From Lactarius indigo (lineage: Eukaryota > Basidiomycota > Agaricomycetes > Russulales > Russulaceae), in assembly GCA_025766275.1 (NCBI GenBank), contig JAFKAC010000019.1:496001-560000 (forward strand): a stretch of 64,000 nucleotides of DNA, written 5' to 3'. A program made the position numbers and the translations under genes. The notes under the pieces are model-generated. The model saw nothing but the letters and a program-made list of their open reading frames with translations, did not search any database and was not told the DNA's origin. This document shows positions 9,294-60,136 of the stretch, piece by piece (the stretch's first letter is position 1; every line of letters starts with the position of its first letter).

Positions 9294-9531
9294 ATTCTTA
9301 TGACGACACAGTAGAGCGGATTTGCAGGCATTGGGAGGGAATAGATTGTCGGACGGCGACACGTTTGGTGCATGGTCTGGTCGTGTCCTGGTGACAGTGG
9401 CAAATGAAGTGGAGGTGCCGGCCCGTGTTACCGCGTCTATCTGATTCTTCCATATCCCGGTCCTTCGTTTGTCGACATGAGGTACCTGCGTTCTCTCACC
9501 GTCGTCCACCAGACTGTTAACAACCCCCAAC
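9294..9531. promoter_or_regulatory. Divergent promoter between ZFP1 and NLR1
   Basis: The 238 bp between the two start codons. It contains the conserved block GCCGGCCCGTGTTACCGCG (9417-9435, 97 bp before the NLR start) and the degenerate box GACACGTTTGGT (about 9357), which reads GACGCGTTTGGT in other copies. A CACCGTCGTC pyrimidine-rich stretch leads to CCAACATGAG. Because the genes are back to back with nothing else between them, this segment should drive both. Confidence 0.6.
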
Positions 9532-12500
9532 ATGAGTCAATCCCCTTCTCCCGCACCCGCTTCCATACCCCAGGCTCCCGTGACTACACTCTCTGAGTCC
9601 TCTTCCACCAGTATCGAACGCATCTTTGATGCCGCTTTAAAGTCGTACAAGAAAAAGACCAAGAACGATCTCAAGAACCACGATCTCTTCAAACAGCTTG
9701 AAGAATGCAATTCCCCCGCTGCCATTCTCGCCGTGTTGCAAACCGCCCAGTTCGATCCTTCGAGGACTGCCAGCAATGATAGGTTGAAAAAATGGCTCGT
9801 TCCGACCGTCAACGTTCTCTGTGCCTTCTCTGGGACGCTAAGTGAAGGCGTCAATTTGGTAAATACACAATCATCTGTCCTTGAATGCGCTCTGATGTTG
9901 ATCCGGCAGGTATTCCCACCTGCCAAACTTGTATTTACCGGTGTTGGTGTCCTCCTCTTGGTGAGTCGCTTCGTTTGTTCCCTCGTGCGGGAACCTCCGG
10001 CATTGAGCGTTCTTAGGCAGCTAAAGATGTTGCCGCAAGCCAAGACATCCTCGTCGACATCTTCGGACGCATCGAAAGTTTCTTCGTGCGACTCGAGACC
10101 TATACTGGGGTCCCGTTGACTCCGGTAATGACGGACAAAATGGTTCAAATCACGGCTGAGGTCCTGGATATCCTTGCGACGGCCACAAAGGAAATGAAAC
10201 AGAGTCGAGCTAGTGAGTTTGACTACCGCTGCCTTCATTGGTCGATGCTAATATCTGTTGAGAAACATTTCTCAAGAAGGTGGTGGGGCGGACGGATCTG
10301 GAGGATGGGCTGAAGAAGCTCGATAAGCTGACGAACGAAGAGGTCGTGATGGCGAGTTCGCAGGTTCTAAGGCTCACGCACACCGTCGATAACAAAGTGA
10401 CGGTGGTTGGCGATGGCGTGAAGGGTGTCGACGAGAAAGTGCAGGTTGTCAAAAGCGAGGTACAGCTCGTTGGCGACAACGTTAAAGCGATCGACGATAA
10501 GGTGCAAACAATAACTGACGGTGGGCGGAGTCTGTTTGGCAACTCATCAGCGTCATCACTCACTTCTATCGTCTAGACTCACTGGAAGTGAAGTTGATCA
10601 CTCGACAAACCGCGGACCAAGTAGCCGACGTGAAGCGTTCGTAATCAGTTCCCATCTTCCCTGGCAGTCGGGCGTCTAACGTGATCACAGGCAACCAATT
10701 ACGGGAAAACCTTAGGAAATGGCAATCTCCACCGGATCCGTCTACAAATCATAACATCGCCGGCGATCGCCAACATGAGGGAACCGCAGAGTGGTTCATC
10801 GAAAGTGACCATTTCGAAACCTGGAAGGTGACTGGTTCCCTTCTGTGGATTCACGGCAAACGTACGTTTTTTTATCCGCGGCTTCGGTGATCTTACGGAC
10901 GACATGTTTCGCAGCGGGCTCTGGGAAAAGTATCCTATGGTCCGTCGCTCTTTACATCTTGCAGTATTTGGAAACTTATGATTGTCGAGTGTAGCTCCGC
11001 AATCATCAACAATGTCAAAACCCTGTGCGAGGCAGGATCGGCTTCGATGGCGTATTTTTATTTCGACTTTCGAGATGTCGACAAGAAAGCTCGCCGCAAC
11101 CTCCTCCCGTCACTCCTCGTCCAACTCTCTACTCGTTCAAATACCTTTTGCGACATATTCTCCTGTCTCTACAAGACACATGACAACGGCGCGCATCAGC
11201 CCAGCGACAAGGCTTTGACCCAGTGCCTTAAGGAGATGCTTACGCTTCCAAGTCAAGGCCCAGTTTATCTTATCATAGATGCCCTTGATGAATGTCCTGA
11301 CACCTCTGATGTCCCATCCGCTCGCGAACTGGTCCTTGATCTCATCAAGGATCTTGTCGGCCTTCGACTTTCTAATCTCCATATCTGTGTCACGAGTCGC
11401 CCGGAGGTCGACATCTGCGATGCACTTAAATCGCTCGCCTCTCAGACAATTTCGCTTCAGGATGAACGCGGGCAGAAGAGCGATATCGCCTCCTACGTCA
11501 GATCTGTGGTCTATTCTGGGTCGGGTAAATTTATGAGGAGATGGAGGAAAGACGACAAAGAGCATGTAATCGAGACGCTGTCAGAAAGAGCTGACGGAAT
11601 GTAAGTGCATAGACAGGTGATTATGACTTGAATTGACGGTATTTAACAGGTTCCGATGGGTCTTTTGTCAGCTCGAAGTGTTGCGAAATTGTCTCCCACA
11701 GAATGTCCAGCGCATCCTCAGAGAGTTGCCCAACTCTTTGGACGAAACATACGAACGCATCTTGAGGGAGATCGGGAAGGTCAATCCAGATCAAGCATAT
11801 CGACTGTTACAATGTCTCGCTGTTGCGACCCGGCCGCTTCGCGTCGATGAGCTTGCAGAAGTTCTTGCGCTCGACTTCGATGGCGCCAAGGGAGGGATAC
11901 CGGTGCTGAACTCAGATTGGCGATGGGATGACGAGCAACAAGGTGTTCTGTCTACGTGCTCGAGCCTGATCGTCGTCGTCGATGATGCTCGCTCGAAGAC
12001 GCGGGTTGTACAATTCGCACATTTCTCTGTGAAGGAGTTCTTGACTTCGGATCGTCTTGCCAACTTGGCAGCAGACATTTCCCGGTTTCATATCCGTCTC
12101 GAGCCAGCCCACACGGTCATTACCCAGGCTTGCTTGGCAATTCTTCTTCAATCCGATTACAATGATACGGTCGAAAGTGGCTCTTCTCTATCTTACTATG
12201 CCGCTCGGCACTGGGTTGACCATGCCCAATTCGAGAATGTATCGTTACATGTACAAGACGGGATGCGACATCTTTTTGATCCTACAAAACCTTATTTCGC
12301 AGCGTGGCGCGAGTTATTTGACATCGACGACTACTTTGAACCGCCCTCTGAGGAACTTGAACTTGAATCTAGCAAAGCTAATGCACCATTATGCCTTTAC
12401 TACTCTGCGTTATGCGGATTCTGTGACTTAACGAAACGTCTCATCGCCGAATATCCGCAGCATGTAAATGCTAGAGTTGGTTCGAAGAGGAGTCCGCTGG

Positions 12501-14044
12501 CGGCAGCATTGTACAATGAACACATTCAAATTGTAGAGCTACTACACCAACATGGCGCAGTCCTGGATATTGGTGGCGGAAGCCCGGGCATCCCTCCTAT
12601 ACTACACACCGCATCGGATCTCGGATTGATGGATGCTGTACAATGGCTTCTCAGCATCGGCGCTGATGTGAATGCACAAGACTACAATTGGACTCCACTC
12701 GACTATGCAGCGGCGAGTGGACACCTGGATGTTGTTCGAACCTTATTGAGACACGGTGCTGGTATCAACGGCGCTACGACGACGGACAACCATACGCCGT
12801 TGCATAAAGCGTCAAGTCTGGGTCACGTCGATATCGTGCGGTTATTGATACATAATGGGGCAGATATCAACGCACAGGATAAGAACCACCAGACACCTTT
12901 GCATCTAGCGTCGTCACCGTCATCATCGTCGAATAATGATGTTGTGCAGACATTGATCGTAAACGGGGCAGATGTTAACGCACGGGATGGGAACCACCAG
13001 ACACCTTTGCATCTAGCGTCGTCCTCATCGTCGAATGATGTTGTGCGGACATTGACCGTAAACGGGGCAGATGTCAATGCACGGGATGGGAACCACCAGA
13101 CACCTTTGCATCTAGCGTCGTCCTCATCGTCGCGGTTGTCGAATGATGTTGTACAGACATTGACCGTAAACGGGGCAGATATCAACGCACGGGATGGGAA
13201 CCACCAGACACCTTTGCATCTAGCGTCGTCCTCATCGTCGAATGATGTTGTGCAGACATTGATCGTAAACGGGGCAGATGTCAACGCACGGGATGGGAAC
13301 CATCAGACACCTTTGCATCTAGCGCCGTCCTCATCGTGGTGGTCGCCGAATGATGTTGCGCAGACATTGATCGTAAATGGGGCAGATGTCAACGCACGGG
13401 ATGAAAGCCACTCGACACCGTTGCATCTCGCGTTATCGCCGCAGTCGTCGTCGCCGCCGAATGTTGATGTTATGCAGACATTGATCCTGAACGGGGCAGA
13501 TGTCAACGCACGGGATGGGAACCACCAGACACCTTTGCATCTAGCGTCGTCCTTATCGTTGAATGATGTTGTGCAGACATTGATCCTGAACGGAGCAGAT
13601 GTCAACGCACGGGATGGGAACCACCAGACACCTTTGCATCTAGCGTCGTCCTCATCGTGGTGGTCGCCGAATGATGTTGTGCAGACATTGATCGTAAACG
13701 GGGCAGATGTCAACGCACGGGATGGGAGCCACTCAACACCTTTGCATCGGGCGTCGTGGTCGTCGCAAGTTGATGTCATGCAGACATTGATCCAGAATGG
13801 GGCGGATGTCAACGCACGAAACCAGGGCCAGTCAACACCTTTGCACCTATTATTTGATACTCTAGTATTTGATGCCGATGCCGATTGCTTGCGTGTGCTA
13901 CTTGCAAACGGTGCAGATGTAGATGCAGTGGATGATAAAGGTCGCACTCCGTACCGGCTTGCTTCATCAGGAGGATATGCCAGTCGCGAGCTGGCACAGT
14001 CGCTATTAGACCATCGCGCCAGTGTCGAACAGAATAGAACATAG
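9532..14044 (+). CDS. NLR1: Goodbye-NACHT-ankyrin STAND receptor
   Basis: Nine exons; introns 9859-9909, 9961-10016, 10213-10262, 10521-10576, 10637-10690, 10862-10914, 10940-10994 and 11601-11649. Spliced length is 4089 nt (1362 aa), one open frame. Residues 1-190 are a fungal STAND N-terminal Goodbye domain (IERIFDAALKSYKKKTKNDL, WLVPTVNVLCAFSGTL, VFPPAKLVFTGVGVLLL). About 225-265 is a short coiled coil. NACHT has Walker A GKPGSGKS (353-360) and Walker B VYLIIDALDEC (453-463), followed by the winged-helix region (LDETYERILREI...HFSVKEFLTS). About 16 ankyrin repeats fill 808-1350. The predicted role is intracellular sensing with nucleotide-controlled switching, by family analogy. Start ATG 9532 opens the conserved MSQ...PAP leader. 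NLR1 lacks the degenerate sixth repeat that NLR2-5 carry. The donor at 10521 (GTGGGC) is the least certain site. Confidence 0.9.
12878..13819 (+). repeat. Near-identical ankyrin-repeat block of NLR1
   Basis: Nine tandem coding repeats of about 96-120 bp. They share TPLHLAS and NGADVNARD almost unchanged at DNA level. They differ at the residues before TPLHL (NHQ or SHS) and in the Ser-rich loop (SSSSSND, SSSSSRLSND, PSSSWWSPND, SPQSSSPPNVD) encoded by TCG/TCA runs. High identity implies recent duplication or gene conversion within the gene. Confidence 0.9.
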
Positions 14045-14330: not shown

Positions 14331-14759
14331 TGTTAAATATGTCTCGTATCTTATCTTCAGTGAGTCGATATCTCGACCATACGTTCTATTCCCGATTATT
14401 TTACGACTAAACGGATATCGTGCAAACCCACGCGATGTCTAGGTATTTGTATACTGACCATCTCGATTCATTCCCCGGTCGTACCAGCGACCGCTTATAC
14501 CTTTTACCTGTAGCTCCTCGAAATCCGAGCGAGGCTCATTACTTTACCTTCCCTCAAGTACCTAAGCCGATAGCTTTCGTATCGTAGCACCTCAGTCCTG
14601 CCTTCAGCGTGCGCAGGAACTGAGGTGCATATTCTCGTAGTTTAACTTTTGTCTTAGCCTGTACTCACTCGCCCCGGTGCGCTCTCTCTTTGTACAGGTG
14701 AATAAAACCTTTAGTTCTGCTTTTAGCGTGCGCAAGAACTGAGTGCGATCTCTCTTTCA
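14331..14759 (+). mobile_element. LTR-like insertion replacing the NLR1-ZFP2 spacer
   Basis: In other units the NLR 3' flank continues into a conserved spacer; here it is replaced from TGTTAAATATG to about CTCTCTTTCA. It contains two copies of a roughly 25-bp motif around GCGTGCGCARGAACTGAG (14606-14627 and 14726-14743) and an AATAAA (14701). The TG..CA ends suggest a solo LTR, but I find no matching TSD and part of the host spacer is missing, so deletion accompanied or followed it. Confidence 0.4.
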
Positions 14760-17700
14760 TTACTACCCTCATCAACATTTCCGTCCTCGTCATAGTCGTT
14801 CAGCGATGTCAAAGACGCAGACCGTGGCCGCCTCCGCGCTGCCAATAACGGTTCTAGGCTCCCCACACAGAGCCGAATCCGCTTACTCCGGCGTCCCCGG
14901 CCCGCGATGACCGTCAATTTCCACTTCCCCTTCGTCGATTTCTGCTCCGGCTGGTCGTGGTTGGGATCTGGGAGGGACACGAGCCGCACCCACCTTCTGC
15001 GCAGTTTCCCGATAAACATATACCGGGCCATTGCAGTTTCTGCGAGGGTTCAGGTATCGGGCTGGTGGAGATAGTGGCGGGGGCAGCTGGGGTGGTGGCA
15101 GCAGGGGCAGGGGAGGTTGTAGGTTGCGAGACGGGTATGATGCGGGCTTTGTTGCCGTGCAAGAACGTACTACCGAGCGGCCGGCCCGAAACCGTGAACG
15201 CTGCGGTCACGCTCCAGCTCGTGTCAAAGACCTGCACATCCGTCGTTGTCGTTGTCTTCACTGGACGCTGCTCGGCTAGCAACGGTGGCGGGACCGATAC
15301 CGGTTCCCTGTTCTTGCTTGCAGGGGTGGATGCAGCACGATGGGAGCCAGCTTGGCGTGCCAATCAACTATGCCACCCACCATCACGTTCGGGGATGTAC
15401 GCCTCTCCGCGCTCCGCGAGCAAAGCGAGCAGTTACAATAATTGCGACAAGCCGGGCACTCGAAGTCTTCCACGGTGCGACCGAACGTCAGCTGGGGATA
15501 CCTACGCTCCCATGAGAGTCAGAATGATGTACTGTATGTGAAGAAATGGATGGAAGCACGCCCGATGACGACGGTGCCGAGGTGCGTTTCTTACGACAAG
15601 CATTTGTAGAAACAGGCGCAGATATTGCGTGGGGGCGTGCGTGGACCATCGCCATTGAAGCTTTCGTCGTCGTTGTCCGCGTTGTGCCTAACCTCGACTT
15701 CGTCTGCAAGTTCCTTGCGCCGGCTCTTCCTCCGCATCCTCGACCCAGCAGCGGCAGCTACGCTCCCCGGCGACTCAACGACGCCATCCGCAACGACCGC
15801 TCGATCCTTGCCCTTGCCCAATCCAGGATTTTTGCTATGAGGGGGCCGCGGTCGGCGCGCACGGTCTCCTCGCAACTTCTCCCCGCACCGCACATCTCCA
15901 CTGCTGCACACCGCGGGCGTCCATGACTATCCAGACGGGCCCATGCTCGGTTTTGTGATACCCGAGCGTGACGGTGTCGACCATAGCCCTAGCCCTAGCG
16001 TTAACGTGGGCCGCGCTCTCACGAGTCCAAGCCAGGGCCTGAACTCTAACCTCACTTCTCCGAATCGCGGCGCCGAAGGGTGGATCGACTGGCGCGCCGG
16101 GAACGTTTTCGGTGGTGCGGGTGCCAGTACAGACACAGACGTCGGTGAGTACGCTGGCGACGGGTCGATCGACCCGTCCATCCTTGGCGGGGGGGGGGAC
16201 AACCTCAGTCCTGGAAAGCTTGGAGACGAGGCGAGCTCGCCAGTTCGTGGGTTCGACGGCGTGCAACCCTCGCGCACGACAGATGAAGACGACGAGGAAG
16301 AGGAAGAGATCATGGAGATGCTGTTTGAGAACACGGCGACGACGACTTTGTGTCGCCATCTGCCGGATCACGTACTGTTCTGTCGCTTGCAATTTGCGCA
16401 CAGGATCTGGAGGATCGGGGAACGAGTGGAAGTGGCTGAGTGCGCATGATGGGATAGCGATCTCCGTGCGTGCGGGTTCTGGCAGGATTGTAAGCCGGAG
16501 AGAGTTGACGTCTTGGGGGTGATTGGTAATGCCTGTTCCTCCAGGGGCAAGGTCGACTCGAGCGTAGACGTGTTAATAGATATGGACGTATGTATGACCT
16601 TGGGTGCATGGCGTAGTCCCCGCGGCGCATCGACAAAAATCACAATTTCTGAGTCGTCGTCATCGTCTTGGTCCTGCTCGTCTACCACGTATCGTCGTTT
16701 CTTCGTGGGCTGGTCGGTGTGTGCGGATGGTGTCTCCCCTTTCTACGCAGCGACACAGCCTGCGCACCCGCGTGCGTGCGAGCTCGTTTCGTCGGCAACG
16801 GGATGACGACCTCCACTCGCGCTGTCACTTGTCGCCTCGGCGCGTGTCTCCTTCGCAAACCGACGCGTAGTAGTCGCCGCCGTGCTGGCGCCGAAGCTAC
16901 CACGTTAGGATTTGTCGAGTTATATGTGAATGCCGCAGCTAACGCCTGGTCACGGGGCGCGGGGATCTTGGACTTGCCTCTCTCTTCCTCCTCGTTGTCC
17001 TCATCGTCTACAACTACCACCGTCTCTTGCCGTCTTTTTCGGCTTCTTCCCTCTAGATCCCGTTCTGCCAGCTCCGGGCCAATTGTTCTCGAACGCGACT
17101 TGCAGTACGTGCACGAGTTCCTTCGAGCCCGAAATAACCCCTGCCCACCCTTTCCCGGCGCATAGTCTGACTTGCGCGCGCCGGGGGGGAGGGCGGTACG
17201 AGAACGTATGCCATCAGCGGCCCCTGTCTCCTCCGTTTCTTGGTCTTTCGCGGGCTGCACTGAGGAGGTCGTCGTCGTGAGGAGGAGGAAGAGGAGTCGA
17301 TGGATATGATGTCCAGGGGGTCGTAGTCCCTGTCTCTGTCACGTTGACCAGGGAGAGGTTCGGACGAAGTGCTTTCGGAGGGGGGAGGGAGGAAGAAAGG
17401 TGTCTACGACATGCGGCGCGAGGGTACACGGGATTGTGAGGATGTGGAACACCTGGGAATACCCACAGGAGCAAGAGGGGGGTGACTCTGTCGCACGACG
17501 TTATGTATACGCATAGAAAGGGTAGAAGGGGAGGGACACACCTCTAACTCCCGATCGTGCTGAGTAACAACGCGCATCTCGACGTCGCCGTCCGTGCTTT
17601 TTCGTGTTAGGTCTGTTGACCGTCCTCACGAGACACTGGCGCGGCGTCATCACCGGCACCAGTGATGGATATTGCCGTCATGTTGCTTTCAGGTTCCGGC

Positions 17701-17920
17701 GCCGACGATCTGGACGGCGGGGCGAAAAGTGAGGGCGAGACTGACGAGAAGGCCGATGCGAGTGTGGGGACAGGAGACCTTGGTTGTGTGAGAGAAAAGC
17801 TGTTATCGACCCGAATCGCGTTGTATAAAAAAAGACCTGCGTGGAGTAAGTCAAAATCGCGTCGTTGAGCGACCAGAGCCGCGTGGCAGGGTCATATGGA
17901 TCAATAGTGATGTGTGCCAT
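14760..17920 (-). pseudogene. ZFP2: zf-4CXXC_R1-family gene, zinc finger broken
   Basis: The minus-strand start at 17920 gives MAHITIDPYDPATRLWSLND. The family order then follows: Ser/Pro-rich part, KKTEEAARETVVVVDDEDNEE-type acidic stretch, KRRRV basic cluster, the LGFVIPE segment, an acidic DEEEE patch, the zinc finger and the C-terminal SLEPLLAARRR region. The second half of the finger is intact (FECPACRNYCNCSLC, about 15420-15470) but a 1-bp deletion follows it (SRSAERRTSP instead of SRKRGEAYIPE). About 140 bp holding the first half (CHHC...FCDLC) are deleted at about 15555. A nuclear role fits the family's known members; this copy cannot make it. It diverges from Goodbye relic A, not an intact NLR. 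Confidence 0.72.
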
Positions 17921-18170: not shown

Positions 18171-18922
18171 ATGAGTCAACCTCCCGCTCCTGTTTTCATG
18201 CACCAGGCTTCCGCAACTACATCTTCCGAGTCCTCTTCCAGTATTGAACGCATCTTTGATGCAGCTCTAAAATTGTACGAGAAAAAGATCTCAAGAACCG
18301 AGACCTCTCGAAACATGCGGTCCTCCCACTGCCATTCTGGCCATATTTCAGGCCGCCCAGTTTGGTCCCTCTCGGACTGCCAACGATGACAGGTTCTCTA
18401 TGCCTTTTCCCAAATCTCTTCTGGCACGCTTACCGAAGGCGTCGCTTTGGTAAACATCCACTCATTTGTCCATCCGCTAATGAACACTCTCTGATGTCAA
18501 TTCGCCAGGTATTCCCACCTTCAAACTAGTATTTGATGGCGTCGGTATCCTCCTCCTGGTAAGTCGCTTCGCTTCTTCCCTCGCGTGGCCATTTCTGGTG
18601 TTGAGCCTTCTTAGGCAGCTAAAGATGTCGCCGCGAGCCAAGACATCCTCATCGACATCTTTGGACGCATCGAATGTTTCTTCGTGCGGCTCGACATTTA
18701 TACTGGGGTCCCACTAACTCCAACAATGATGGAGAAAAAGTGCAAATCACGGTCGAGATCCTGGATATCCCTGCGACGGCCAAAAAGGAAATGGAACAGA
18801 ATCAAGCGAGTGAGTGAATTCACCATTTTACGTTGATTGAGGCTAATATCGGTTCAGAAAGATTTGTCAAGAAGGCAGCGGGGCGCACGAACCTAGAGGA
18901 TGGGCTGAAGAAACATGGCAAA
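18171..18922 (+). pseudogene. Goodbye-domain relic A
   Basis: Begins exactly like the NLR genes (MSQPPAPVFMHQ...ESSSSIERIFDAALKLYEKK). Deletions after codon 40 throw it out of frame (KISRTETSR). Exon 2 (GTATTCCCACC), exon 3 (GCAGCTAAAGATGTCGCC) and the beginning of exon 4 (LEDGLKKHGKL) can still be traced, each with small lesions. At about 18922 it joins the 3' end of ZFP3. NACHT and ankyrin parts are absent. Confidence 0.85.
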
Positions 18923-42403: not shown

Positions 42404-42658
42404 ATTCTCATAACGACACAGTAGGGCGGATTCGCGGGTATTAGGAGGGAATAGATTGTTGGACAGCGACGCGTTTGGTGCGTGATCTTGGGGTTAGCCT
42501 GCTTCTGCTGCCAGTGGTCGTGCTCTGCAATGAAACGGAGGTGCCGGCCCGTGTTACCGCGTCTACCATTCTTCCATATCGAGGTCCTTGGTTTGTCGAC
42601 ACGAGGCACCAGCATTCTCTCACCGTCGTCTACTAGACACTGTCAACATACCCCCAAC
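42404..42658. promoter_or_regulatory. Divergent promoter between ZFP6 and NLR4
   Basis: The canonical version: intact GCGACGCGTTTGGTGCGTG (about 42466) and GCCGGCCCGTGTTACCGCG (42543-42561), 98 bp before the NLR4 ATG, then TCTTCCATATC and CACCGTCGTC. Confidence 0.6.
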
Positions 42659-47817: not shown

Positions 47818-48111
47818 ATATGGCACGTCCTCAATGGCGAACGCAGTGCTGATAGCACACTCCACCTCTTCCGGCGTGATCCCTGCCATCTCCACCTAAG
47901 CAGGTGGTACAGGTACCACATCAAGTACCACGTACTCCCCGGGCCAAATCCCGTCGTCTGCATCTGGGTCCACATCGACATCGCCACCCTCATCAACATT
48001 TCTGTCCTTGTCATTGTCATTCAGCGATGTCAAAGAAGCAGACCGCCACTGGCGCCGCCTCCGCACCACCAACAACGGCTCAAGGCTCCCCACAAAAAGC
48101 CGAATCCACTT

Positions 48112-49082
48112 CAAGGGGGGGCCGGAATTCTTAAAATTGCACGGGGTCGGTAAATTTTTTTAAGGGGTTGGGCCATACCCCCCCCTCCCCCCAAAAAGGA
48201 AATTAAATGCCAAATATGGAAATTTCTTAGATTACCCCCCCCATCGTGCATTGCTGCCAAACTGCTGGCACCACACACGTTTCTGTGTGTTCTATAAACA
48301 TTGCCATGAGTGCTGTATGCTACCACCAAGCTGGGAACATGCAACTTCATTGCTTACATTTATCAAAGTTGAGTTCCCCTAACTTTTAAGCTCAGTGTCA
48401 GTGTGGCTCATTCTTTTTGTTCTCCGGCTTTCTGCATTTGTCCGCAGCCTTATTGGCTCAAACAAGACGTATCTCCGACTCATACAACTACATATGTGAA
48501 GTTTTGTGTTATGTGCAAATGTGCACAATCATTTTCGACCCTCTGCAACAACCTGACCTTGTTTCTGTTCTCGACCCCGCCACACATCTACGCACGTTTA
48601 TCCTTTCGAGATAAACACGTCCCCAATCACCGCGGACCTGTATGCGACAGCGCGCGTTCCGCGGACGTGTGCGCGACACCTTGCGACGCATCACATGCCC
48701 CAAGACCTGTAGATGCTCTTAGACGGAGTTGGGGCTCAGGCCACTGTAACTGTAGTTAAATAGATTCCTTGTAGAATAGTACAGTAACATGTAGTAAATA
48801 GAATTCTAGTATCCCTTTGAAAAAACCCACCATGCAACGGGTATGGGTTTTGTGTGGGTACCTCAGATCTGACCCACACCCACACCCACAAACCCATATT
48901 CGGGTACCCGCATGGGTTTACAAACACACAATATGCACTATTGCTGAGATGATACAGGGGAAAAGCAGGAAATTTCCAGATCGGCCTGGCCTTAGACACC
49001 CAAAAAGCAAATTTTTTTAGAGACTTTTGGCTGACCCCCCCCCCCACCTCGGGTCATGGAACCACGGCCCGGCCCCCCCTTG
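48112..49082. mobile_element. hAT-like non-autonomous DNA element
   Basis: 971 bp with terminal inverted repeats CAAGGGGGGGCCGG / CCGGCCCCCCCTTG, flanked by the perfect 8-bp direct repeat ATCCACTT (48104-48111 and 49083-49090). Uninterrupted paralogues (ZFP2, ZFP9) confirm the empty site (GAATCCGCTTACCCCGGC). 8-bp TSDs and CA-G-rich ends are typical of hAT. Internal short ORFs show no transposase motif. The right part has ACCCG/GGGT inverted motifs (48838-48920). Confidence 0.88.
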
Positions 49083-50863
49083 ATCCACTTACCCCGGCGT
49101 CCCCGGCCCGCTATTACCGCCAACTTCCTCTTCCCCTCAAGCTTCCCCTTCGTCTTTTTCTGCTGCCCTGGCTGGTCGTAGTTGGTATCTAGAGGAGAAA
49201 CGAGCCGCCCCCACCTCTTGCGTTGTTTCCTGATGAACAAATGTCTACGCCGTTGCAGTTGCTGCAGTTTCTGCGCGGGTTCGGGTATCGGGCTGGTGGA
49301 GATAGTGACGAGAGCAAGGGGTGATAGCAGTAGCTGCAAGAGAGGCCCTGGGTTGCGAGAGGGGCACGATGTGCACTTTGTTGCCGTGCAAGAATGCACT
49401 TCCAAGCGGCTCGCCAGAAACTGTGAAGACCGCGGTGGCGCCCCAGCTCGCGTCAAAGACTTGCGCATCTGTCGGTGTGGCTGTCTTCGCTGGGCGCTGC
49501 TTGGCTGGCGGTGGCGGCGGCGGCGGCGGCACCGATACCTGTTCCCTAGTCTTGCTCTTGCTTGCGAGGGTGGATGGGGCATGATGGGAGCCACCTTAAT
49601 GTGCCAACCAACTGCGCCACCCGCCACCACGTTCAGGGATGTACGCCTCTCCGCGCTTCCGCGAGCAAAGTAAACAGTCACAATAGTTACGACAAGCCAG
49701 ACACTCGAGGTCTTCCGCGGTGCGAGCAAACGTCAATTGGGGGGACAGTACCTACGCTCCATGAGAGTCAGCAATACGTACTGTATGTGAGGGGACAGAG
49801 GACGTACCGTTTCTCAGTCCAGAGGTCGCAAAACAAACTGCGGTATTGCTCGTCCGTCGATGCCTTGATCAACGTGCAGCACACCTTGAGCCGGGGTATC
49901 TTACGTCCTCAATGGTGACAGAACATAAGCCCCCTCGGGAGCATCCTTAATGACGACGATGCTGGGGTGCGGCGATTCCTGTGTCGAGCATTTGTAAAAC
50001 AGGCGCAGATGTTGCGTGCGCGCGCAGACCGTCGTCATCGCTGTCGTCGTTGTGCCCAACCTTGACTTCATTGGCAAGTTCCTCACGCTAGCTCTTCCTC
50101 TGCATCCTCATACCAGCGGCGGCAGCAATGCTCTCCGGCAACTCGACGGCGCCGTCTACAACGACCGTTCGACCCTTTCCCCTGCCCAATCCCAATGGCG
50201 GCACAAAGATGTCGCTGCTCGTGTTCCCAAACGACATGTCCATGACATCTTCCTCTTCCTCTTCCCCATCATCTTCGTCCATCACGCGCGAGGGTTGTAC
50301 GCCACCGAGTCCACGAACTGGGGAGCTCACATTGTCCACAAGCCTGCCAGGACTGAGGTCGCCACCCCTGCCAAGTACGGATGGGTCAGTCGTCCCGTCA
50401 CCAGCATACTCGCCGACGCCCGTGTCTATACTGGCGCCTGCACCACCGAAAATGTTCCCGCCGTGCCAGTAGATCCCCCCTTCAGCGCCGCGATTTGGGG
50501 AGGTAAGGTTAAAGCTCAGGCCTTCGCTTGGGCTCGTGAGAGTGCGGCCCACGTCCACGCTAGCGCTAGTGTCGACGCCGTCATGCTCGGGTATCACAAA
50601 ACCGAGCACGGGCCCGTCTGGATGGTCATGGGCACCCGCAGTGCGCAGCAGTGGAGGTGCGGGGTGCGGGGGCACAAAGTCGCCGTCGATCCCGTGCGCA
50701 TCTGCGTCTGCATCTGTATCTGCAGGCCCAGCTCGAGGTCCATAGAAATGTCAAGGTCGAGATCCAGGCTCGCATCCTGTAGATCATCGAGATCGGTTGC
50801 AGTTGCAGGAGTAGAGTTGGTGGTGGTGGCACAAGCACCGCTGACCGAGGCGGGGGTAGGTTC

Positions 50864-51301
50864 TAATGAAACGCAGTAAGTGAAATTATGTCTGGCAGCC
50901 CAGATAGAACGTAAGTTTTTCTTATTGTGAACATAAAACGATACTCGCCTGGCACCCCAGATAGTACATAAGTTTCTGGTGTGCCAGTCCATACAACGCG
51001 CGAATAAGTACTGGCTAAGGAGCGTGAATGCACGTGAATACGTGCTCGGGCATAACGGGCATACAAAACCACAATCGTACAGTGATACCACAATCGAGTA
51101 CATACAGGAGTTGTCCCCGATCACAAACTGATTGTAACTAAGTCGTAAAGTAAAGTAACGAATAACAAATGAGTGTGTTCCATACAAGTCTATACATCTC
51201 GACTCTTCTACCATTACACCTCCAGGGTGTACTTCCATCCGCACATGAGATGCGGTCGACTCCCAACGCCGAAGTGTGACACGCATGAGCACCACTTCAA
51301 C
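50864..51301. mobile_element. 438-bp insertion of unknown class in ZFP7
   Basis: Lies between two AGGTTC copies (50858-50863 and 51302-51307) where ZFP9 is contiguous (GGGGTAGGTTCGGCAGC). The ends (TAATGAAACG / CACTTCAAC) are neither TG..CA nor clear inverted repeats. It contains a degenerate internal duplication: CCCAGATAGAACGTAAGTTT and CCCAGATAGTACATAAGTTT. Possibly a solo LTR of an atypical family or a SINE-like element. Confidence 0.6.
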
Positions 51302-53060
51302 AGGTTCGGCAGCGGGAGAAGTTGCGAGGAGACCGTGTGCGCCGACCGCGGCCTCCACATAGCAAAAACCCTGCCGATTGCGTACGGTTCTGTCGCTTGC
51401 AATTTGCGCACGGGATCTGGAGGATCGGGCGACGAGTGCAGGTGGCTGAGTGCGCGCGGAGGGATAGCCATCTCCGTGCATGCGCGTTCAGGCAGGATTG
51501 TAAGCGGGAGGCCTGCGAGAGAGTTGACGTCTGGGGGAGTGATTGGTGATGACTGTTCCTCCGGGGGCGGGATTGATTCGGGCGTGGATGTGTGGATAGA
51601 CATGGACGTGTGTATGGCGAGTGGGGTTGAGGCGCGATGCTGCTGGGCGGAACGACGAGGCTTATGTCTAGACTGTGGTCGGGCAGGCGATTGTAATTAG
51701 GGCTTGGCCTTATGGTACCCGGCCATTGACGATAACCTCAATTTCGGAGTCGTCGGAGTTGTCTTGGTCCTGCTCGTCTCCTACGCGTCGTCATCTTCTG
51801 CGTGGGTTGGTTGACGTGTGCAGATGACGTCTCCCCTTTCTACGCGGCGACACAGCCTGCGCACGCGCCTGCGTGCGAGCTCGTTTCGTCGGCAACGGGA
51901 CGACGACCTCCATGCTCGCGCTGTCACTTGTCGCCTCAGCGCGTGTCTCCTTCGCAAACCCGGCGCGTAGTAGTCACCGTCGGTGTTGACGCCGACGCCA
52001 CCACGTTGGGATTTGTTGAGTTGTGTGTGAATGCCGCAGCTAACGCCTGGTCAAGGGGCGTGGGGATCTTAGAATTGGACTTGTCTATCTCTTCCTCTTT
52101 GTCGTCCTCGTCGTGCACAACTACAACCGTCTCTCTTGCTGCTTCCTTCGTCTTCTTCCCACCAGGTCCCGTGCTGCCCGCTCTGGGCCAATTGTTCTTA
52201 AATGCGACTTGCAGCACGTGCACAAATTCCTTCGAGCCCGAATTGTCCCCTGCCCGACCCTTACCCTTTGCTGCGGTCTGGCGTTGCCGTGTCCGAGGCC
52301 GTTGCCTTATTGGCGCATAGTCTGACTTGCGCGCGCCGGGCGGGAGGGGCGGTACGAGGACGTAAGCCATCAGCTGTCCACGTCCCTTCCGTTTCTTGGT
52401 CTTTCGCGGGCTGCACAGAGGAGGTCGTCATCGTGAGGAGGAAGGGAAGTCGATGGATATGATGCCCAGGGGGTCGTAGTCCCTGACTCTGTCACGCCGA
52501 CTGGGGGGAGGTTCAGAAGAGGGGCGTCTTTAACATGCGGCGTGAGGGTACACGATATTGCGAGGAAAAAGAGCATCTGGAGGCACCCGCAGGAGCAGGA
52601 GGTGGCTGACTCTGTCGCACGGCATTATGTGTGTACATAGAAAGGGTAGAAGGGGACGGACACACCTCTATGACCCGATCGTGATGAGTAACGACGCGCA
52701 TCTCGACATCACCGCACTTTTCGTGTTAGGTCTGTTGGTCGTCGTTCTCATGAGACACTGGCGTGGGATCATCACTAGGAGCAGTGTCAGGTATCGCCGT
52801 CATGTTGCTTTCACGTTCCGGCGGCGACGATCTGGACGGCGGGCGAAAGGCGAGGGTGAGAATGACGAGGAGGCTGGCGCGACTGCGGAGACAGGGGACC
52901 TTGGCTATGTGAGAGAAAAGCCGTTATCGACCCCAATCGTGTTGTATAAAAAAGACCTGCCTGGAGTAAGTAAAACTCGCGTTTGTGCTGGGAAAAAAAC
53001 GTGCCGTTGAGGGACCAGAGCCACGTGGCGGGGTCGTCTGGATCGACAGTGATGTCTGCC

Positions 53061-53290
53061 CTGAGACCGCATCCTTGTGACGATAGGGCGGATTCGTGAG
53101 CATTAGGTGGGAATGGACTGTTGACCACGAGGGCGCGTTTGGGTGCGTGATCGTGGGACTGGAGGTGCCGGCCCGTGTGTTCCGCGTGTTGTTTCGGGGT
53201 CCATCTGGTTCTTCCGCAACTGGCAGTGTCCTTGCTTTATCGGCAGAAGAAGCCCTGGTATTCTCGTCACCAGACTGCCATTCCCTCAAC
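53061..53290. promoter_or_regulatory. Divergent promoter between ZFP7 and Goodbye relic C
   Basis: Contains GCCGGCCCGTGTGTTCCGCG (about 53167), a variant of the conserved block, and GGGCGCGTTTGGGTGCGTG (about 53132) at the ACGCGT-box position. Confidence 0.4.
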
Positions 53291-53560
53291 ATGAGTCAAC
53301 CTCCCGCTCCTGTTTCTATGCTCTTGGCTTCAGCAACTACATCTTCCGAGTCCTCTTCCAATATTGAAGCATCTTTGATGTAGGCTCGTTCAGACTCTCA
53401 ACGTTCTTTATGCCTTCTCTGGCACGGCTTACCGAAGGCGTCACTTTGGTAAATATCCACTCATTTGTTCATCTGCTAATGAACATGCTCTGATGTCAAT
53501 TCGGCAGGTATTCACACCAGCTAAGGTAGTATTTGCTGGCGTCGGTGTCCTCCTCCTGCG
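53291..53560 (+). pseudogene. Goodbye-domain relic C
   Basis: Starts MSQPPAPVSMLLASATTSSE like the NLR leader, then a deletion jumps from SNIEASL to the NVLYAFSGT region and stops. Intron 1, and exon 2 as far as GTATTTGCTGGCGTCGGTGTC, can be traced. At about 53560 it fuses to the antisense 3' end of ZFP8. Shares features with relic A (GGTAAATATCCACTCATTTG) and is probably its sister copy. Confidence 0.82.
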
Positions 53561-55374
53561 TGATCCTCACCACCTCCTCCACCTGAACAGGCAGTACGGG
53601 CACGACGTACTCACCGGCCCAGATTCCGTCGTCTGCATCTACATCTGTATCCACATCAGCATCGCTGCCCTCATCAAGAACTCCATCCTCGTCCCCACCG
53701 TCATCGCCGTTCAGCAGCGTCAATCACCCAGACTGTCGCCGTCGCCGCCTCTGCCGTGGCACCAACAATGGCTCTAGGCCACGAAGAGCCGAATCCACGT
53801 CCCTGGCCCGCCATACCGTGAACTTCCCCTTCCCCTTCGTCTTTTTCTGCTTCATCGGCTGGTCGTGCTTGGGATCCGGAAGGGACACAAGGCGCCCCCA
53901 CGTCTTGAGAGGTTTCCAGTATACCGATGCCTTCGCAGAAGCTCCTGCTGCTTCTGTGCAGGTGTCGGTACCGCTCAAGCTCGCGTCAAAGACCTGCGCG
54001 TTGGTTGTCGTCGGGCGTCGCTTCGTCGCCACTGGCACCTGCGCCGTTCCGATGTCTTTTCTCTTACTCTTTCTTGCGGGGGCGGGCACGGTGGCGCAAT
54101 GGGAGTCTCCTCCTGCCATTCCGTTCGGGGATGTACACCTCTCCGCGCTTCCGCAAGCAGTTTCAATCTTTGTGGCAAGCCGGACATTCGAACTCTTCTG
54201 CTGAGCCATCGAACGTCAACTTGGGGTACCTGCTGTAGCAAGTAATAGACGTCGACCCAAGGGGAGGCGTAGACAAAAGAGATAGAAGAGAGAAATAGGA
54301 AATACAGACGGGAAAGCAGACTCAGGCTGATATCGTTAACGTGAAAGTGGGAGTATAAGTTCTGTTCATTTTTCCGTAATCGACCATAGAGTAAATACGT
54401 CTAATTAGTAATCGAATAGTAACAAGTAAAGTATTATTCCAAGCCCAGGAGGACTATAATCCTTACACTGCGCTCCAAGAGCCAGAATTGTCCCCCGCCC
54501 GTGCCTTTCCCTTGGCTGCGGTCTGGCACTGGCGCATGCGGAGTCGTTGTTGTATTGGTGCATAGTCTGACACGCATACACCAAGCAGGAAGGGAGGTAT
54601 GAGGACGCACGTCATTAGTTGCCCTCCATTTCTTGGTCTTACGCGGGCTGCGCCGAAAAGGCGGCGGTGGTGGTGAGAAGGCATGAGATGTCCAGCGGGT
54701 CGTGGCCCCTTTCTCTATCGCGTTGGCAGGGGAAGGTCCGGACGGATTTATTTCGGAGGAGAAGGGGAGGAAGAGGAACGTCTTTGATATGCAGCGTGAG
54801 GCAACACGGGATCGTGTAGACGAGGAGCGCCTGGAGGCACCCGTAGGAGGGAGCCGCCTCTGTAACATGGAGTATGTATACACGCAAAAAGGGTGGGACG
54901 GATGGACAAACCTGTGATGAACCCTGATCCCGATCGTGGGGGGCGATAACGTGCATCTAGACGTCGCTGTCCGCGCCTTTTCGTTTTGGGCCGGCCTGTT
55001 TGGCCGTTATCCTCACGGGACACCCCGACGTGTAGCCAATGACGTACTCACTCGTGGTAGATCGTCGCCAAGCGAAGTTGCCGTCTCATTACTTTCTCGT
55101 TCTGGCGGCTTGGAGGCCTGATGGGACAAAGATCTGGACGGCGGGGTGAAAGGCAAAGGTGAAATTGATGAGGAGGCTGACGCGACAATGGGGCCGGGGG
55201 AATCTTGACTGGGAGAAAGGCATCATCGAACCAAATCGCGTTCATGCTAGCTAAGAAGGCCTGCATGGAGCAAGTCCGAAGTCGCATTTGTGTTGGGCAA
55301 AGCTGCATCATTGAGTGACTAGAGCCGCTGGGCGCGGTCAGTTGGACCGAGGGTAGTATCTGAAATGGGCCCAT
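53561..55374 (-). pseudogene. ZFP8: internally deleted zf-4CXXC_R1-family gene
   Basis: Only the two ends remain. The minus-strand 5' part (start 55374, MGPFQILPSVQ, frameshifted relative to LWSLND) runs to about 54484. It is joined there to the zinc-finger 3' half (FECPACHK ... NCLRKRGE, about 54120-54232) and the C-terminal KTWGRLVSLPDPKHDQP / DADDGIWAGEYVVPV region. The basic cluster, acidic middle and first finger half are missing, about 2 kb compared with ZFP4. It shares the NCLRKRGE deletion and the 54234-54467 insert with ZFP3. It is the divergent partner of NLR5, 255 bp away. Confidence 0.72.
54234..54467 (+). mobile_element. LTR-like insert shared with ZFP3
   Basis: TGTAGCAAGTAATAGACG...ATCCTTACA with TG/CA ends, flanked by CTGC on both sides (54230-54233 and 54468-54471). 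234 bp here against 137 bp in ZFP3, where about 95 bp of the middle are deleted. Probably a small solo LTR. Confidence 0.65.
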
Positions 55375-55629: not shown

Positions 55630-58600
55630 ATGAGTCAACTTCCTGCCCCTGTTTCTATACCTCAGGCTCCCGGAAATACGCCCTCCGAGTCCTCTTCCAA
55701 TATCGAACGCATCTTTGATGCCGCCCTAAAGTCGTACAAGAAAAAGACCAAGAACGATCTTAAGAACCACGATCTCTTCAAACAACTCGAAACATGCAAC
55801 TCTCCTGCTGCCATTCTCTCCGTATTTCAAGCAGCACACTTTGATCCCTCTCGGACTGCCGGCGATGACAGGGTGAAAAAATGGCTTGTCCCGGCCATCA
55901 ACGTACTTTATGCCTTCTCCGGGACGCTTAGCGAAGGTGTCACTTTGGTAAATATCAACTCACTTGTCCATCTGCTAATGAACGCGCCTTGATGTCAATT
56001 CTGCAGGCATTCCCACCTGCCAAGCTAGTATTTGCCGGCGTTGGCGTCCTCCTCTTGGTGAGTCGCATCGTTTCTTCCCTCGCGCGGGAACCTCCAGTGT
56101 TGAGCGTTATTAGGCAGCTAAAGATGTTTCCGCGAGCCAAGACATCCTCGTCGACATCTTCGGACGCATTGAGAGTTTCTTCGTGCGACTCGACATTTAT
56201 ACCGGGGTCCCACTAACTCCGGCAATGACGGACAAAATGGTGCAAATCACGGTTGAGATCCTGGATGTCCTTGCGACAGCCACAAAGGAGATGGAGCAAA
56301 GTCGAGCGAGTGAGTCCGACCACCATTTTATGTTGATCGATGCTAATATCGATTCAGAAAAATTTGTCAAGAAGGTGGCGGGTTGGACAGACCTAGAGGA
56401 TGGGTTGAAGAAGCTCGACAAGCTGACGAGCGAGGAGGTTGTGATGGCAGCCGTGCAGGTTCTGAATGTGGCGCACCAGATCGATAACAAAGTGACGGGG
56501 GTCGGCGAGGGCGTGAGTGGCGTCGACGAGAAAGTCCAGGTTGTCAACGACAACGTCAAAGCGGTCAGTGATAAGGTGCAAACAATAGCTGACGGTTCGC
56601 AAAGTCTCTTTGGCAATTCAGCAGCATCATCTCCAATTTTTATCATCTAGACGACAAGGCAACCGCAGTGGAAGTAAAACTGATCCTTCGACAAACTGCG
56701 GACGAAGTGGGTAACGTGAAGCGTTCGTAATCAGTCCCATCCTCGCTAGCAGTTGAGTATCTAACCCAATCACAGGGAACCAACTACGGGAAAGCCTTAG
56801 GAATTGGCAATCTCCACCGGATCCGTCCACCAATCATAACATCGCCGGTGATCGCCAACACGAGGGAACCGCCGAGTGGTTCATTGAAAGTGGCCAATTC
56901 GAAAACTGGAAGTTGACTGGTTCCTTACTGTGGATTCACGGCAAACGTATGTTTCTTTTACCTGTGACCTCGCCTCTTCGGTGATTATATGGACCACACG
57001 TTTCCCAGCGGGCTCCGGGAAGAGCGTCCTATGGTTCGTCGCTCCTCAAATCTTGCAGTGTCGTGAAACTTATAATTGTCGAGTAGCTCCGCAATCATCA
57101 ACGATCTCACAATCCTATGCGGGGCCGGATCGGCTTCGATGGCGTATTTTTATTTCGACTTTCGAGATCTCGACAAGCAAGCCCGCCGCAACCTTCTTCC
57201 ATCACTCCTCATCCAACTCTGTACTCGTTCCGATGCTTTTTGCAACATTCTCTCCCGTCTCTATGAGACACACGACAACGGCGAGCGCCAGCCTAGCGAC
57301 AAAGCTTTAACCCAGTGCCTTAAGGAGATGCTTACGCTTCCAAATCAAGGACCCATTTATCTTGTCATGGATGCCCTTGATGAGTGTCCCGACACCTCTG
57401 ATGTCCCATCGGCCCGCGAACAGGTCCTTGATCTCGTAAAGGACCTTGTCAGCCTTCGTCTTCCTAGTCTCCATATTTGTGTTACGAGTCGCCCGGAGGT
57501 CGACATCTGCGATGCGTTCGAGTCACTCGCGTCTCAGACAGTTTCGCTTCAGGATGAACACGGGCAGAAGAAGGATATCGCCGACTATGTCAGATCAGTG
57601 GTCTACTCTGGCTCGGGTAAATTTATGAGGAGATGGAGGAAAGAAGACAAAGAACATGTGATTGAGACGCTCTCAGAAAGAGCCGACGGAATGTAAGAGC
57701 ACATACGGGTGATTATGACGACGGTGGTTGATGGTATTTAACAGGTTCCGCTGGGTCTTTTGCCAGCTCGAAATGTTGCGAAATTGCCTCCCACAGAACG
57801 TCCAGCGGGTTCTTAGAGAATTACCCAACTCTTTGGACGAGACATACGAGCGAATGTTGAGGGAGATCGGGAAGGTCAACCCAGATCAAGCTTATCGTCT
57901 GTTACAATGTCTCACCGTGGCAACTCGGCCACTTCGTGTCGAAGAGCTTGCAGAAGTTCTCGCGCTCGACTTCGATGGGTCCAAGGAAGTAATACCCGCG
58001 CTAAACAAAGACTGGAGATGGGACGACGAACAACAAGGTGTCCTTTCTACGTGCTCGAGCCTGATCGTCGTCGTCGATGACGAGTCTTCGAACACGCGGG
58101 TTGTACAATTCGCACATTTCTCGGTGAAGGAGTTTTTGACTTCGGATCGGCTTGCCAACCTAGCAACAGACGTTTCCCGGTTTCATATCCGTCTCGAGCC
58201 AGCACACACGGTCATCACGCAGGCTTGCTTGGCAATTCTTCTTCAGTCAGACTTTAGTGGTTCGGTCGGACGTAGCTCACCTCTATCTGACTATGCCGCT
58301 GAGCACTGGGTAGACCATGCCCAATTCGAAAGTGTATCGTTAGCTGTAGAAGACGGGATGCAACATCTTTTTGATCCTGCAAAACCATATTTCGCAGCAT
58401 GGCTCAAGTCTTTCGACATCGACAGAAGATGGTATTCTTTTCTACCGTCTCCTATTGGTGCATATCCCCCTGTTCACCCACGGGAATCTATTCCGTCAAG
58501 TGAAGCCTCTGCTTCGCTATGCCTATACTACGCTGCGTTGTGCGGATTTCGTGACCTAACGAAACACCTCGTCGCTGAGTATCCGCAGCATGTAAATGCT

Positions 58601-60136
58601 ACGGTTGGTCGTAACAAGAGTCCGCTGGCAGCAGCATTGAGTAAGAGGCACATTCAAGTTGCAGAGCTATTACACCAGCATGGCGCGGTCCTGCGTATTG
58701 GTTACGGAAGTCGCACTCTTCTTCACGCTGCATCGGCGGATGGGTTGGTGGATGTTGCAGAATGGCTATTAAATATCGGTGCAGATGCGAATGCGCAACA
58801 ACATGACCACACGACACCACTCCACTTGGCAGCGGCGGGTGGACACTTGAAAGTTGTTCGAACGTTACTGAGGCACGGTGTAGATGTCGACGCCGCTACA
58901 ACGACGGACAACCATACTCCGTTGCATAGAGCATCAAGAGGTGGCCACGTCGATATCGTGCGGTTATTGATTCAGAATGGGGCGGACGCAAGCACCGACC
59001 TTCAGAGGCTATTTCTTCTAGCATCATCGTCGGGGAGTACCGAAACTGTGGAACTCTTCATCCGGCGCGGGGGGGACGTGAACGCACGAGATATGAGCCA
59101 CAAGACGCCTTTACACCTGGCATCGTCGTCTCTTTTCTCGAAAAGTGATGTTGTACAGACATTGATCCTGAGTGGGTCAGATATCAATGCACGGGATGGG
59201 AGCCACTCGACGCCTTTACATCTCGCATCAGAGTCGTCGAATGGTGACGTTGCGCAGACGTTAATCCAGAACGGGGCGAATGTAGATGCACGGGATGGGA
59301 GCCACTCAACGCCTTTGCATCTTGCGTCATCTTCCTGTAAAGGTGATATTGTGCAGACATTGATCCTGAATGGTTCGGATGTCAACGCACGAGATGGGAG
59401 TGGCAAGACGCCTTTGCATCTCGCGTCGGAGTCGCTGTCGGAGTCGAAAGGCGATGTTATGCAGACGTTGATGCTGAATGGGGCGGATGTCAACGCACGG
59501 GATGTGAGGCACAATACACCTTTGCATTTGGCGTCGTCGTGGTCGTCCTCAAGTGGCGATGTTGTGCAGACGTTGATCCTGAATGGGGCGGATGTCAACG
59601 CACGGGATTGGACCCACTCGACACCTTTGCATCTCGCGTCGCTTTACCCGAGAGTTGATGTTGTGCAAACATTGATCCTGAATGGGGTGGACGTCGATGC
59701 ACGGGACATGACGCACAAGACGGCTTTGCACCTGGTGTCAGAGTCGCGTTATTCGAAAGGTGATGTCGCGCAGACATTGATCCTGAATGGGGCGGATGTC
59801 AACGCACGGGATGAGAGCTACTCGACGCCTTTGCATCTCGCGTCGAAGTCGTCAAATGGTGATATTGTGGAGACGTTGGTCCTAAATGGGGCAGATGTCA
59901 ACGCACGGAATCAGGACCAGTCAACGCCTTTGCACCAAATATTTTACCGTCAATCTGATCATTCTTTGGAGCCCAATGCCGATTCCTTGCGCCTGCTACT
60001 TGAAACAGGTGCAGAAGTAGATGCAGTGGATGATGAAGGTCGGACTCCGTATCAGCTTGCTTCGTCAGGGGGATATCACGAAATGGCACAGTCGCTATTA
60101 GACCACCGTGCCAGTGTCGAACAGAATAGAACGTAG
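55630..60136 (+). CDS. NLR5: Goodbye-NACHT-ankyrin STAND receptor
   Basis: Nine exons; introns 55948-56006, 56058-56113, 56310-56357, 56595-56650, 56723-56775, 56947-57008, 57034-57086 and 57693-57744. Spliced length is 4068 nt (1355 aa), in frame. The Goodbye domain (NIERIFDAALKSYKKKTKND; exon 2 begins AFPPAKLVFAG rather than VFPPAK) is followed by a short coiled coil without VQVVKSE heptads (VQVVNDNVKAVSDKVQ). NACHT has Walker A GKPGSGKS and Walker B IYLVMDALDEC. The winged-helix region diverges from the other copies at DFDGSKEVIPALNKDWRWDD. About 16 ankyrin repeats follow. Exon 5 is 72 nt, as in NLR3. Predicted cytosolic receptor; divergent partner ZFP8 is deleted. Confidence 0.9.
59090..59908 (+). 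repeat. Ankyrin-repeat block of NLR5
   Basis: Eight coding repeats with tips MSHK, GSHS, GSGK, VRHN, WTHS, MTHK and ESYS and loops SSLFSKSD, ESSNGD, SSCKGD, ESLSESKGD, SWSSSSGD, LYPRVD, ESRYSKGD and KSSNGD. Loops are shorter on average than in NLR1. Confidence 0.88.

What the first reader, a model, noticed from the sequence alone, without database searches (positions are those of the whole stretch)
9294..60136. Tandem array of divergent NLR / zf-4CXXC_R1 gene pairs
Seen: five intact Goodbye-NACHT-ankyrin genes on one strand, each with a zinc-finger-family gene starting 215-410 bp upstream on the other strand, plus more pairs in which both members are broken. Known: Goodbye and NACHT-ankyrin architectures are common among fungal NLRs, and zf-4CXXC_R1 is the zinc finger of CDCA7, a chromatin and DNA-methylation factor. 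Inference: the repeat unit is the pair, not the NLR alone, so the two genes were probably co-inherited and co-expressed. They may have formed a receptor plus nuclear effector module, analogous to head-to-head plant NLR pairs. I know of no description of this pairing.
Basis: partly seen in the sequence, partly recalled or inferred. Interest (0 to 1): 0.8.

Follow-up and report, generated by a model that had tools for sequence, protein, structure and literature searches.

The report
Immune-receptor array carrying dead passenger genes
In a milk-cap mushroom genome, a cluster of immune-receptor genes grew by repeated duplication and dragged along copies of a neighbouring zinc-finger gene; every checked copy that faces a receptor gene is broken, so the striking head-to-head gene pairs look like a by-product of duplication and not a working two-gene module.

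Summary
The window lies in Lactarius indigo. The geometry holds: five Goodbye-NACHT-ankyrin genes on +, each facing a zf-4CXXC_R1-family copy on -, plus degraded pairs. But the zf copies are pseudogenes. Of 31 zf copies projected on the full gene, 2 are intact: A7, 26 kb beyond the window, and its counterpart on C57. Both lie beside an SSZ1-like Hsp70 gene and face no NLR; of the 29 broken ones, 28 face an NLR or NLR remnant. Homology to A7's upstream region never passes a point 108 bp above A7's start codon: 23 of 31 places end there, 8 short of it. So the head-to-head spacer is a tandem-duplication joint; the unit was probably NLR-> <-zf. NLR pairs show dN/dS 0.18-0.30; the four closest broken zf pairs 0.53-0.83, five other broken pairs 0.28-0.41. 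The two most similar NLR pairs face strongly diverged zf copies. zf and SSZ1 share a contig length in Russula earlei, so zf is probably an old resident gene. Verdict: hitchhiking passenger, not a receptor-effector module; the NLR-zf linkage itself is probably older than L. indigo.

The parts
8202..8803 (-). zf fragment (A7 residues about 95-281), faces NLR1
   Evidence: tblastn, 3 HSPs, 4 stops; homology to A7 upstream region ends at 9359
9538..14044 (+). NLR1, Goodbye-NACHT-ankyrin; annotated protein P0035 matches it by eye
14759..17920 (-). zf copy A1, pseudogene, with an internal inverted piece at 15824-16338
   Evidence: 19 frameshifting indels; inverted piece
18171..18925 (+). NLR remnant (Goodbye part only), faces A1
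   Evidence: 5 stops
18943..22522 (-). zf copy B1, pseudogene; finger lacks 3 codons including one Cys of the last CxxC
22776..27537 (+). NLR2, Goodbye-NACHT-ankyrin
28091..31744 (-). zf copy A2, pseudogene (PF10497 still hits at 5.3e-6, several Cys lost)
   Evidence: 13 frameshifting indels, 6 stops; Pfam; finger row
31824..32152 (.). spacer of the A2/NLR3 head-to-head pair: duplication joint near 31824, then NLR upstream sequence
32152..36654 (+). NLR3, intact 9-exon gene, 1357 aa, Goodbye-NACHT-WHD-ankyrin
37193..40292 (-). zf copy A3, pseudogene
   Evidence: 18 frameshifting indels, 9 stops
40754..41355 (+). NLR remnant facing A3
41317..42424 (-). zf copy B3, truncated (26% of the CDS), faces NLR4
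42659..47266 (+). NLR4, Goodbye-NACHT-ankyrin; annotated protein P0033 matches it by eye
47821..53062 (-). zf copy A4, pseudogene with an insertion
   Evidence: 12 frameshifting indels, 7 stops
53291..53558 (+). NLR remnant facing A4
53550..55366 (-). zf copy B4, truncated pseudogene, faces NLR5
   Evidence: 17 frameshifting indels, 9 stops, 44% of the CDS
55630..60136 (+). NLR5, Goodbye-NACHT-ankyrin
60989..64000 (-). zf copy A5 (continues to about 68.4 kb in window numbering, split by a retroelement-like ORF), pseudogene

Best explanation
The array is an expanding fungal NLR cluster that carries a passenger. An old resident gene for a large zf-4CXXC_R1 protein (about 1230 aa) lay beside SSZ1, with an NLR on its 3' side (NLR-> <-zf SSZ1). 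A segment with one break 108 bp above the zf start codon and the other above the NLR was duplicated in tandem. This set each new zf copy head-to-head with the next NLR and cut it off from most of its native upstream region. Further exchange multiplied the unit on C101, C46 and C57, in both orientations. Selection kept the NLRs; the surplus zf copies lost function one after another, and the resident copy next to SSZ1 survived. Shown: joint position, intact and broken copies, relaxed divergence among the closest broken pairs, partner changes. Inferred: the ancestral order NLR-> <-zf, the exchange mechanism, promoter truncation as a cause of decay, and immune function of the NLRs.
For: Homology to A7's upstream region ends at A7 position 94262-94266 in 23 of 31 other places and short of it in 8; only A7 and its C57 counterpart run on into SSZ1. 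In the 25 other copies aligned, sequence beyond the joint is common to them and differs from A7. 2 of 31 zf copies are intact, the two beside SSZ1. dN/dS: 55 pairs among 11 NLRs 0.18-0.30; A7 versus C57 counterpart 0.22; the four broken pairs with dS up to 0.124 give 0.53, 0.62, 0.72 and 0.83. NLR3/46N3 differ at 3.4% of exon sites but face zf copies 26.7% apart, and 57bN2/57bN3 at 3.6% but 22.2%. zf and SSZ1 share a contig length of 57,243 in Russula earlei and of 8,496 in an environmental contig, whose two proteins (1086 and 511 aa) leave at most 3.7 kb, too little for a full NLR. A7 and the NLRs on the same contigs read cleanly, so the lesions are not general sequencing error.
Against: Five other broken pairs give dN/dS 0.28-0.41, and broken copies versus A7 0.22-0.67, with 0.34-0.36 for A2-A5; about 0.6 would be expected for a copy free from birth, so some copies were constrained, or converted, for a time. 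Five broken copies (A6, 46A1, 57aA2, 57bA2, 57bA3) keep all finger cysteines in the projected frame, and A6 is annotated as a 939-aa protein with the finger (P0001), so shortened proteins cannot be excluded. Most B-type units keep NLR and zf distances in step (for example NLR6/57aN1 0.049 and 0.078). Intactness is judged against one gene model whose first intron (GC-AG) is inferred. The ancestral NLR position on the 3' side was not seen in another species.
Confidence: 0.88

Rival explanations
1. Working receptor-plus-nuclear-effector module: the NLR senses and the divergent zf protein acts on chromatin.
For: Some zf copies seem to have been constrained for a while after duplication.
Against: 0 of 28 projected zf copies facing an NLR or remnant intact; partner changes; the intact gene faces SSZ1; related zf proteins occur across Agaricomycetes such as polypores and Auriscalpium.
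Confidence: 0.03
2. The head-to-head pair is ancestral and was once functional; the copy next to SSZ1 lost its NLR partner and later the other zf copies died.
For: All other copies share one joint, which would also follow if that joint were the original state.
Against: SSZ1 and zf share a contig length in Russula earlei and in two environmental contigs, one only 8.5 kb long, which suggests that zf beside SSZ1 is the older state. In Auriscalpium vulgare and Taiwanofungus camphoratus the listed lengths differ.
Confidence: 0.06
3. Promoter capture: the retained zf 5' end serves as upstream control region of the NLR, so zf pieces are kept for their promoter, not their protein.
For: Truncated copies (B3, 46y, rA1, rA2) keep the zf 5' part next to the NLR or remnant.
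Against: Among 11 units the 100 bases on the zf side of the joint are no more alike (0.82) than the adjoining dead zf body (0.81-0.86), and the first 100 bases beyond the joint have 37% gaps.
Confidence: 0.05
4. Assembly or sequencing error makes the zf copies look broken.
For: Intactness rests on one draft assembly.
Against: A7, its C57 counterpart and the NLRs on the same contigs read cleanly; broken copies have 3-19 frameshifting indels each, and B copies share the loss of three finger codons.
Confidence: 0.02

Closest known systems
Fungal NLR (STAND) genes with Goodbye N-terminus (passages of PMC9815663 read; PMC4986451 seen as a listing only)
   Same: Goodbye PF17109, NACHT/NPHP3_N and ankyrin repeats, in a large family
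   Different: Nothing in the NLRs themselves was found unusual; the difference is the passenger gene in the repeat unit
NWD2 / het-S type NLR-effector neighbour pairs (passage of PMC9815663)
   Same: An NLR gene next to another gene
   Different: There the neighbour is a cell-death effector with a shared amyloid motif and works; here every projected NLR-facing neighbour is broken and partners can change
CDCA7 / CDCA7F zf-4CXXC_R1 proteins (section 8 and passages of PMC10538959)
   Same: A7 has 11 cysteines and matches human CDCA7 structures (8yv8, E 8e-7); its main exon gave no other Pfam domain at E <= 0.01
   Different: Long fungal protein with another sequence after the last CxxC; a second zf-4CXXC_R1 gene on C170 matches CDCA7 slightly better (3.1e-7), so A7 need not be the CDCA7F orthologue
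Head-to-head plant NLR pairs (recalled, no call)
   Same: Divergent geometry
   Different: In plants both partners are NLRs and both are maintained (recalled)

Membership tests
Fungal Goodbye-type NLR | N-terminal Goodbye domain | tested here: met
   PF17109, 8.7e-16 in NLR3; the other four by homology to NLR3
Fungal Goodbye-type NLR | NACHT/STAND NTPase with Walker A | tested here: met
   NPHP3_N and NACHT hits in all five; GKPGSGKT in NLR3
Fungal Goodbye-type NLR | C-terminal superstructure-forming repeats | tested here: met
   ankyrin repeats in all five
Fungal Goodbye-type NLR | ligand-triggered immune or incompatibility function | not testable with these tools
   no expression or phenotype data
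zf-4CXXC_R1 / CDCA7F | 11 cysteines of the finger | tested here: met
   met in A7; lost in many facing copies
zf-4CXXC_R1 / CDCA7F | class II signature (substitution at the ICF glycine) | tested here: inconclusive
   A7 has N and D where human has G around the FCxxC motif in the alignment; which of the two is the ICF glycine was not settled
zf-4CXXC_R1 / CDCA7F | orthology to CDCA7F (own clade) | not tested
   no CDCA7F sequences were fetched; C170 holds a rival candidate
NLR plus divergent effector module | both partners intact | tested here: not met
   0 of 28 projected zf copies facing an NLR or remnant intact
NLR plus divergent effector module | partners stay together through duplication | tested here: not met
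   not met in NLR3/46N3 and 57bN2/57bN3, the two closest NLR pairs of 13 units; most B-type units do stay in step
NLR plus divergent effector module | co-expression | not testable with these tools
   no RNA data

The most novel reading that the evidence does not exclude
The NLR-zf linkage is shared by several Lactarius species, and in one with a complete finger in the zf protein annotated on the NLR contig (L. sanguifluus, contig length 210,672) the two may still work together, the L. indigo pairs being the decayed remains of a once functional receptor-chromatin module.
Probability: 0.05. Interest if true: 0.65.

Novelty: new member of a known kind. Interest (0 to 1): 0.27.

Why it matters
It warns against reading function from a repeated divergent gene pair: tandem duplication of a convergent pair yields divergent pairs for free. 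It also gives something useful: about 30 dead passenger copies interleaved with live NLRs form a built-in, largely neutral yardstick for dating duplications, partner changes and selection in a fungal NLR cluster.

Tried and rejected
Receptor-effector module: rejected on intactness, partner changes and the duplication joint. Shared promoter under constraint: identity around the joint is no higher than in the dead gene body. A7 as the CDCA7F orthologue: left open, because C170 holds a finger that matches CDCA7 slightly better. DNA methyltransferase presence was checked (7 DNA_methylase matches) but says nothing about A7. Literature: searches listed no paper that describes an NLR/zf-4CXXC_R1 pairing or this array, judged by titles and abstract starts; beyond listings I saw section 8 and passages of PMC10538959 and passages of PMC9815663.

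Left out or capped: C57:270-300 kb could not be fetched, so at least three more zf places there are not classified; the fragment at window 8202-8803 and a small piece at C101:639954-640123 were not projected. Copy 46A2 is broken but no NLR coding piece was found within about 10 kb on its facing side, only NLR-upstream sequence at the joint. Whole-genome counts are lower bounds: 121 of 759 NLR candidates and 41 of 667 A7 candidates were scored. The NLR list shows the best 120 of 217 and that the best 120 of 513, so absence of a shared contig length is weak evidence. Against linkage in other species: zf contigs of L. vividus (175,932), L. pseudohatsudake (725,140), R. earlei (57,243) and R. dissimulans (592,529) do not appear in the listed NLR rows, and L. 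deliciosus has close NLRs but no listed zf. Against SSZ1-zf linkage: the listed lengths differ in Auriscalpium vulgare (58,440 and 58,290) and Taiwanofungus camphoratus (4,278,167, the longest of three, and 221,158), and R. dissimulans is not among the listed SSZ1 rows.
Full report
WHERE. The window is C101:496001-560000 of a 90.3-Mb, 291-contig assembly. A protein from the array is Lactarius indigo H4582DRAFT_496407 on a contig of the same length, 907,742, so the species is L. indigo. C101:585458-599087 matches C57:239032-252655 at 96.2%, and parts of C46 match C101 at up to about 93%, so both haplotypes, or large duplications, are probably in the assembly.

NLRs. Five + strand NLRs in the window carry NPHP3_N/NACHT and ankyrin exons. 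NLR3 was modelled as nine exons giving 1357 aa without a stop, with GKPGSGKT and a Goodbye domain at 8.7e-16. Nineteen NLRs were projected on it. The seven of the main C101 array have no stop and no net frameshift up to the winged-helix region, apart from insertions at the alignment ends. Of the other twelve, rN1 has no recognisable N-terminal half and rN2 is deleted in part; 46N2 shows one stop codon inside an 18-base compensated indel; 57bN1, 57bN2 and 57bN3 have compensated indels only; 46N4 has a one-base gap at the variable exon 4-5 joint; the remaining five show no lesion. The 330-residue winged-helix query scored 121 of 759 candidate places; the 20 with at least 80% identity all lie on C101, C46 and C57.

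ZF GENE. The intact copy, A7, lies outside the window at 90265-94158 (window numbering, - strand): four exons, 1232 aa, the first intron read as GC-AG. Its finger has 11 cysteines and matches human CDCA7 structures. 24 proteins at E <= 0.001 include Lactarius, Russula, Auriscalpium and several polypores. In L. indigo all 26 hits of the second finger exon and all 68 listed A7 matches (41 of 667 candidates scored) are on C101, C46 and C57. One different zf-4CXXC_R1 gene is on C170.

GEOMETRY. In the mapped stretches (C101 476-650 kb, C46 730-790 kb, C57 90-130 and 200-260 kb) the zf 5' end faces the 5' end of an NLR or of a Goodbye-only remnant in 28 of the 31 copies that were later projected: 16 face an NLR with its NACHT part and 12 a remnant. 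The exceptions are A7 and its C57 counterpart, which face SSZ1, and 46A2, where only NLR-upstream sequence was found. Two zf types recur: A, which mostly faces a remnant, and B, which has lost three codons in the last CxxC and faces an NLR with its NACHT part.

THE JOINT. A search with A7's upstream region and SSZ1 found 31 other places with the zf 5' end: in 23 homology ends at A7 position 94262-94266, in 8 it ends short of that, and only A7 and its C57 counterpart continue into SSZ1. In an alignment of 25 of these copies with A7, the copies change at or near that point to sequence that leads to the NLR start, and A7 does not. A single founding break 108 bp above the zf start codon is the simplest reading. 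Tandem duplication of NLR-> <-zf makes exactly such head-to-head joints.

DECAY. 31 zf copies were compared with A7. A7 and 57bA4 (C57:239820-243828) have no frameshift and no early stop. The other 29 have 3-19 frameshifting indels each. Rates: 55 pairs among 11 NLRs 0.18-0.30; A7 versus 57bA4 0.22. Nine pairs of broken zf copies: the four with dS up to 0.124 give 0.53 (46A1/57bA3), 0.62 (A3/46A2), 0.72 (B5/B6) and 0.83 (57bB1/57aB1); the five with dS 0.13-0.22 give 0.28, 0.28, 0.28, 0.30 and 0.41. Against A7, 27 broken copies with more than 300 shared codons give 0.22-0.67. The low values suggest a period of constraint, or conversion, before loss, and soften the claim that the copies were dead on arrival.

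PARTNER CHANGES. Among 13 units the two closest NLR pairs are NLR3/46N3 (3.4% of exon sites) and 57bN2/57bN3 (3.6%); their facing zf copies differ at 26.7% and 22.2%. The 7.6-kb block shared by C101 and C46 holds NLR3 with the zf copy on its 3' side (A3/46A2) and only the 5' end of the facing one. Most B-type units, by contrast, keep NLR and zf distances in step.

OTHER SPECIES. The protein tables give contig lengths. zf and the closest NLRs share a length in L. sanguifluus (210,672), L. akahatsu (229,854) and L. hengduanensis (122,031); the annotated zf proteins of the last two lack a complete finger, which could be a gene-model fault. zf and SSZ1 share a length in R. earlei (57,243) and in two environmental contigs (8,496 and 19,848). 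Equal length is taken as the same contig; distance and orientation are unknown. Two zf proteins of L. vividus share a length of 175,932, one with a complete finger and one degraded, so duplication with decay is probably not limited to L. indigo.

CONCLUSION. The NLR is what selection keeps; the zf copy is a passenger, and the working zf gene is the old neighbour of SSZ1.

Noticed in passing
window 3032-7446: LINE-like element at the left end of the array: endonuclease (Exo_endo_phos_2), reverse transcriptase and RNase H frames.
   Followed up: no
L011:813-4628 (window numbering 64813-68628), - strand: A 1272-aa ORF that looks like a reverse transcriptase (by eye) interrupts zf copy A5; its first part reads as A5 sequence.
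   Followed up: partly
window 15824-16338: An inverted piece inside zf copy A1.
   Followed up: no
window numbering 100848-113212, - strand: Tandem family of four ORFs of about 480 aa with an F-box-like N-terminus (by eye) right of SSZ1.
   Followed up: no
G000, contigs C135, C212, C221, C245: Large expansion of related NLRs (about 59-65% identity, dozens of scored places); no zf finger hit on these contigs.
   Followed up: no
L006:1400-1680, - strand (C170): A separate zf-4CXXC_R1 gene slightly closer to CDCA7, followed by a long frame of unknown type; no scored NLR hit on that contig.
   Followed up: partly
window 23663-23739 and 43562-43658: A 21-base repeat coding for a heptad varies in number between NLR copies, in the linker before NACHT.
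   Followed up: no
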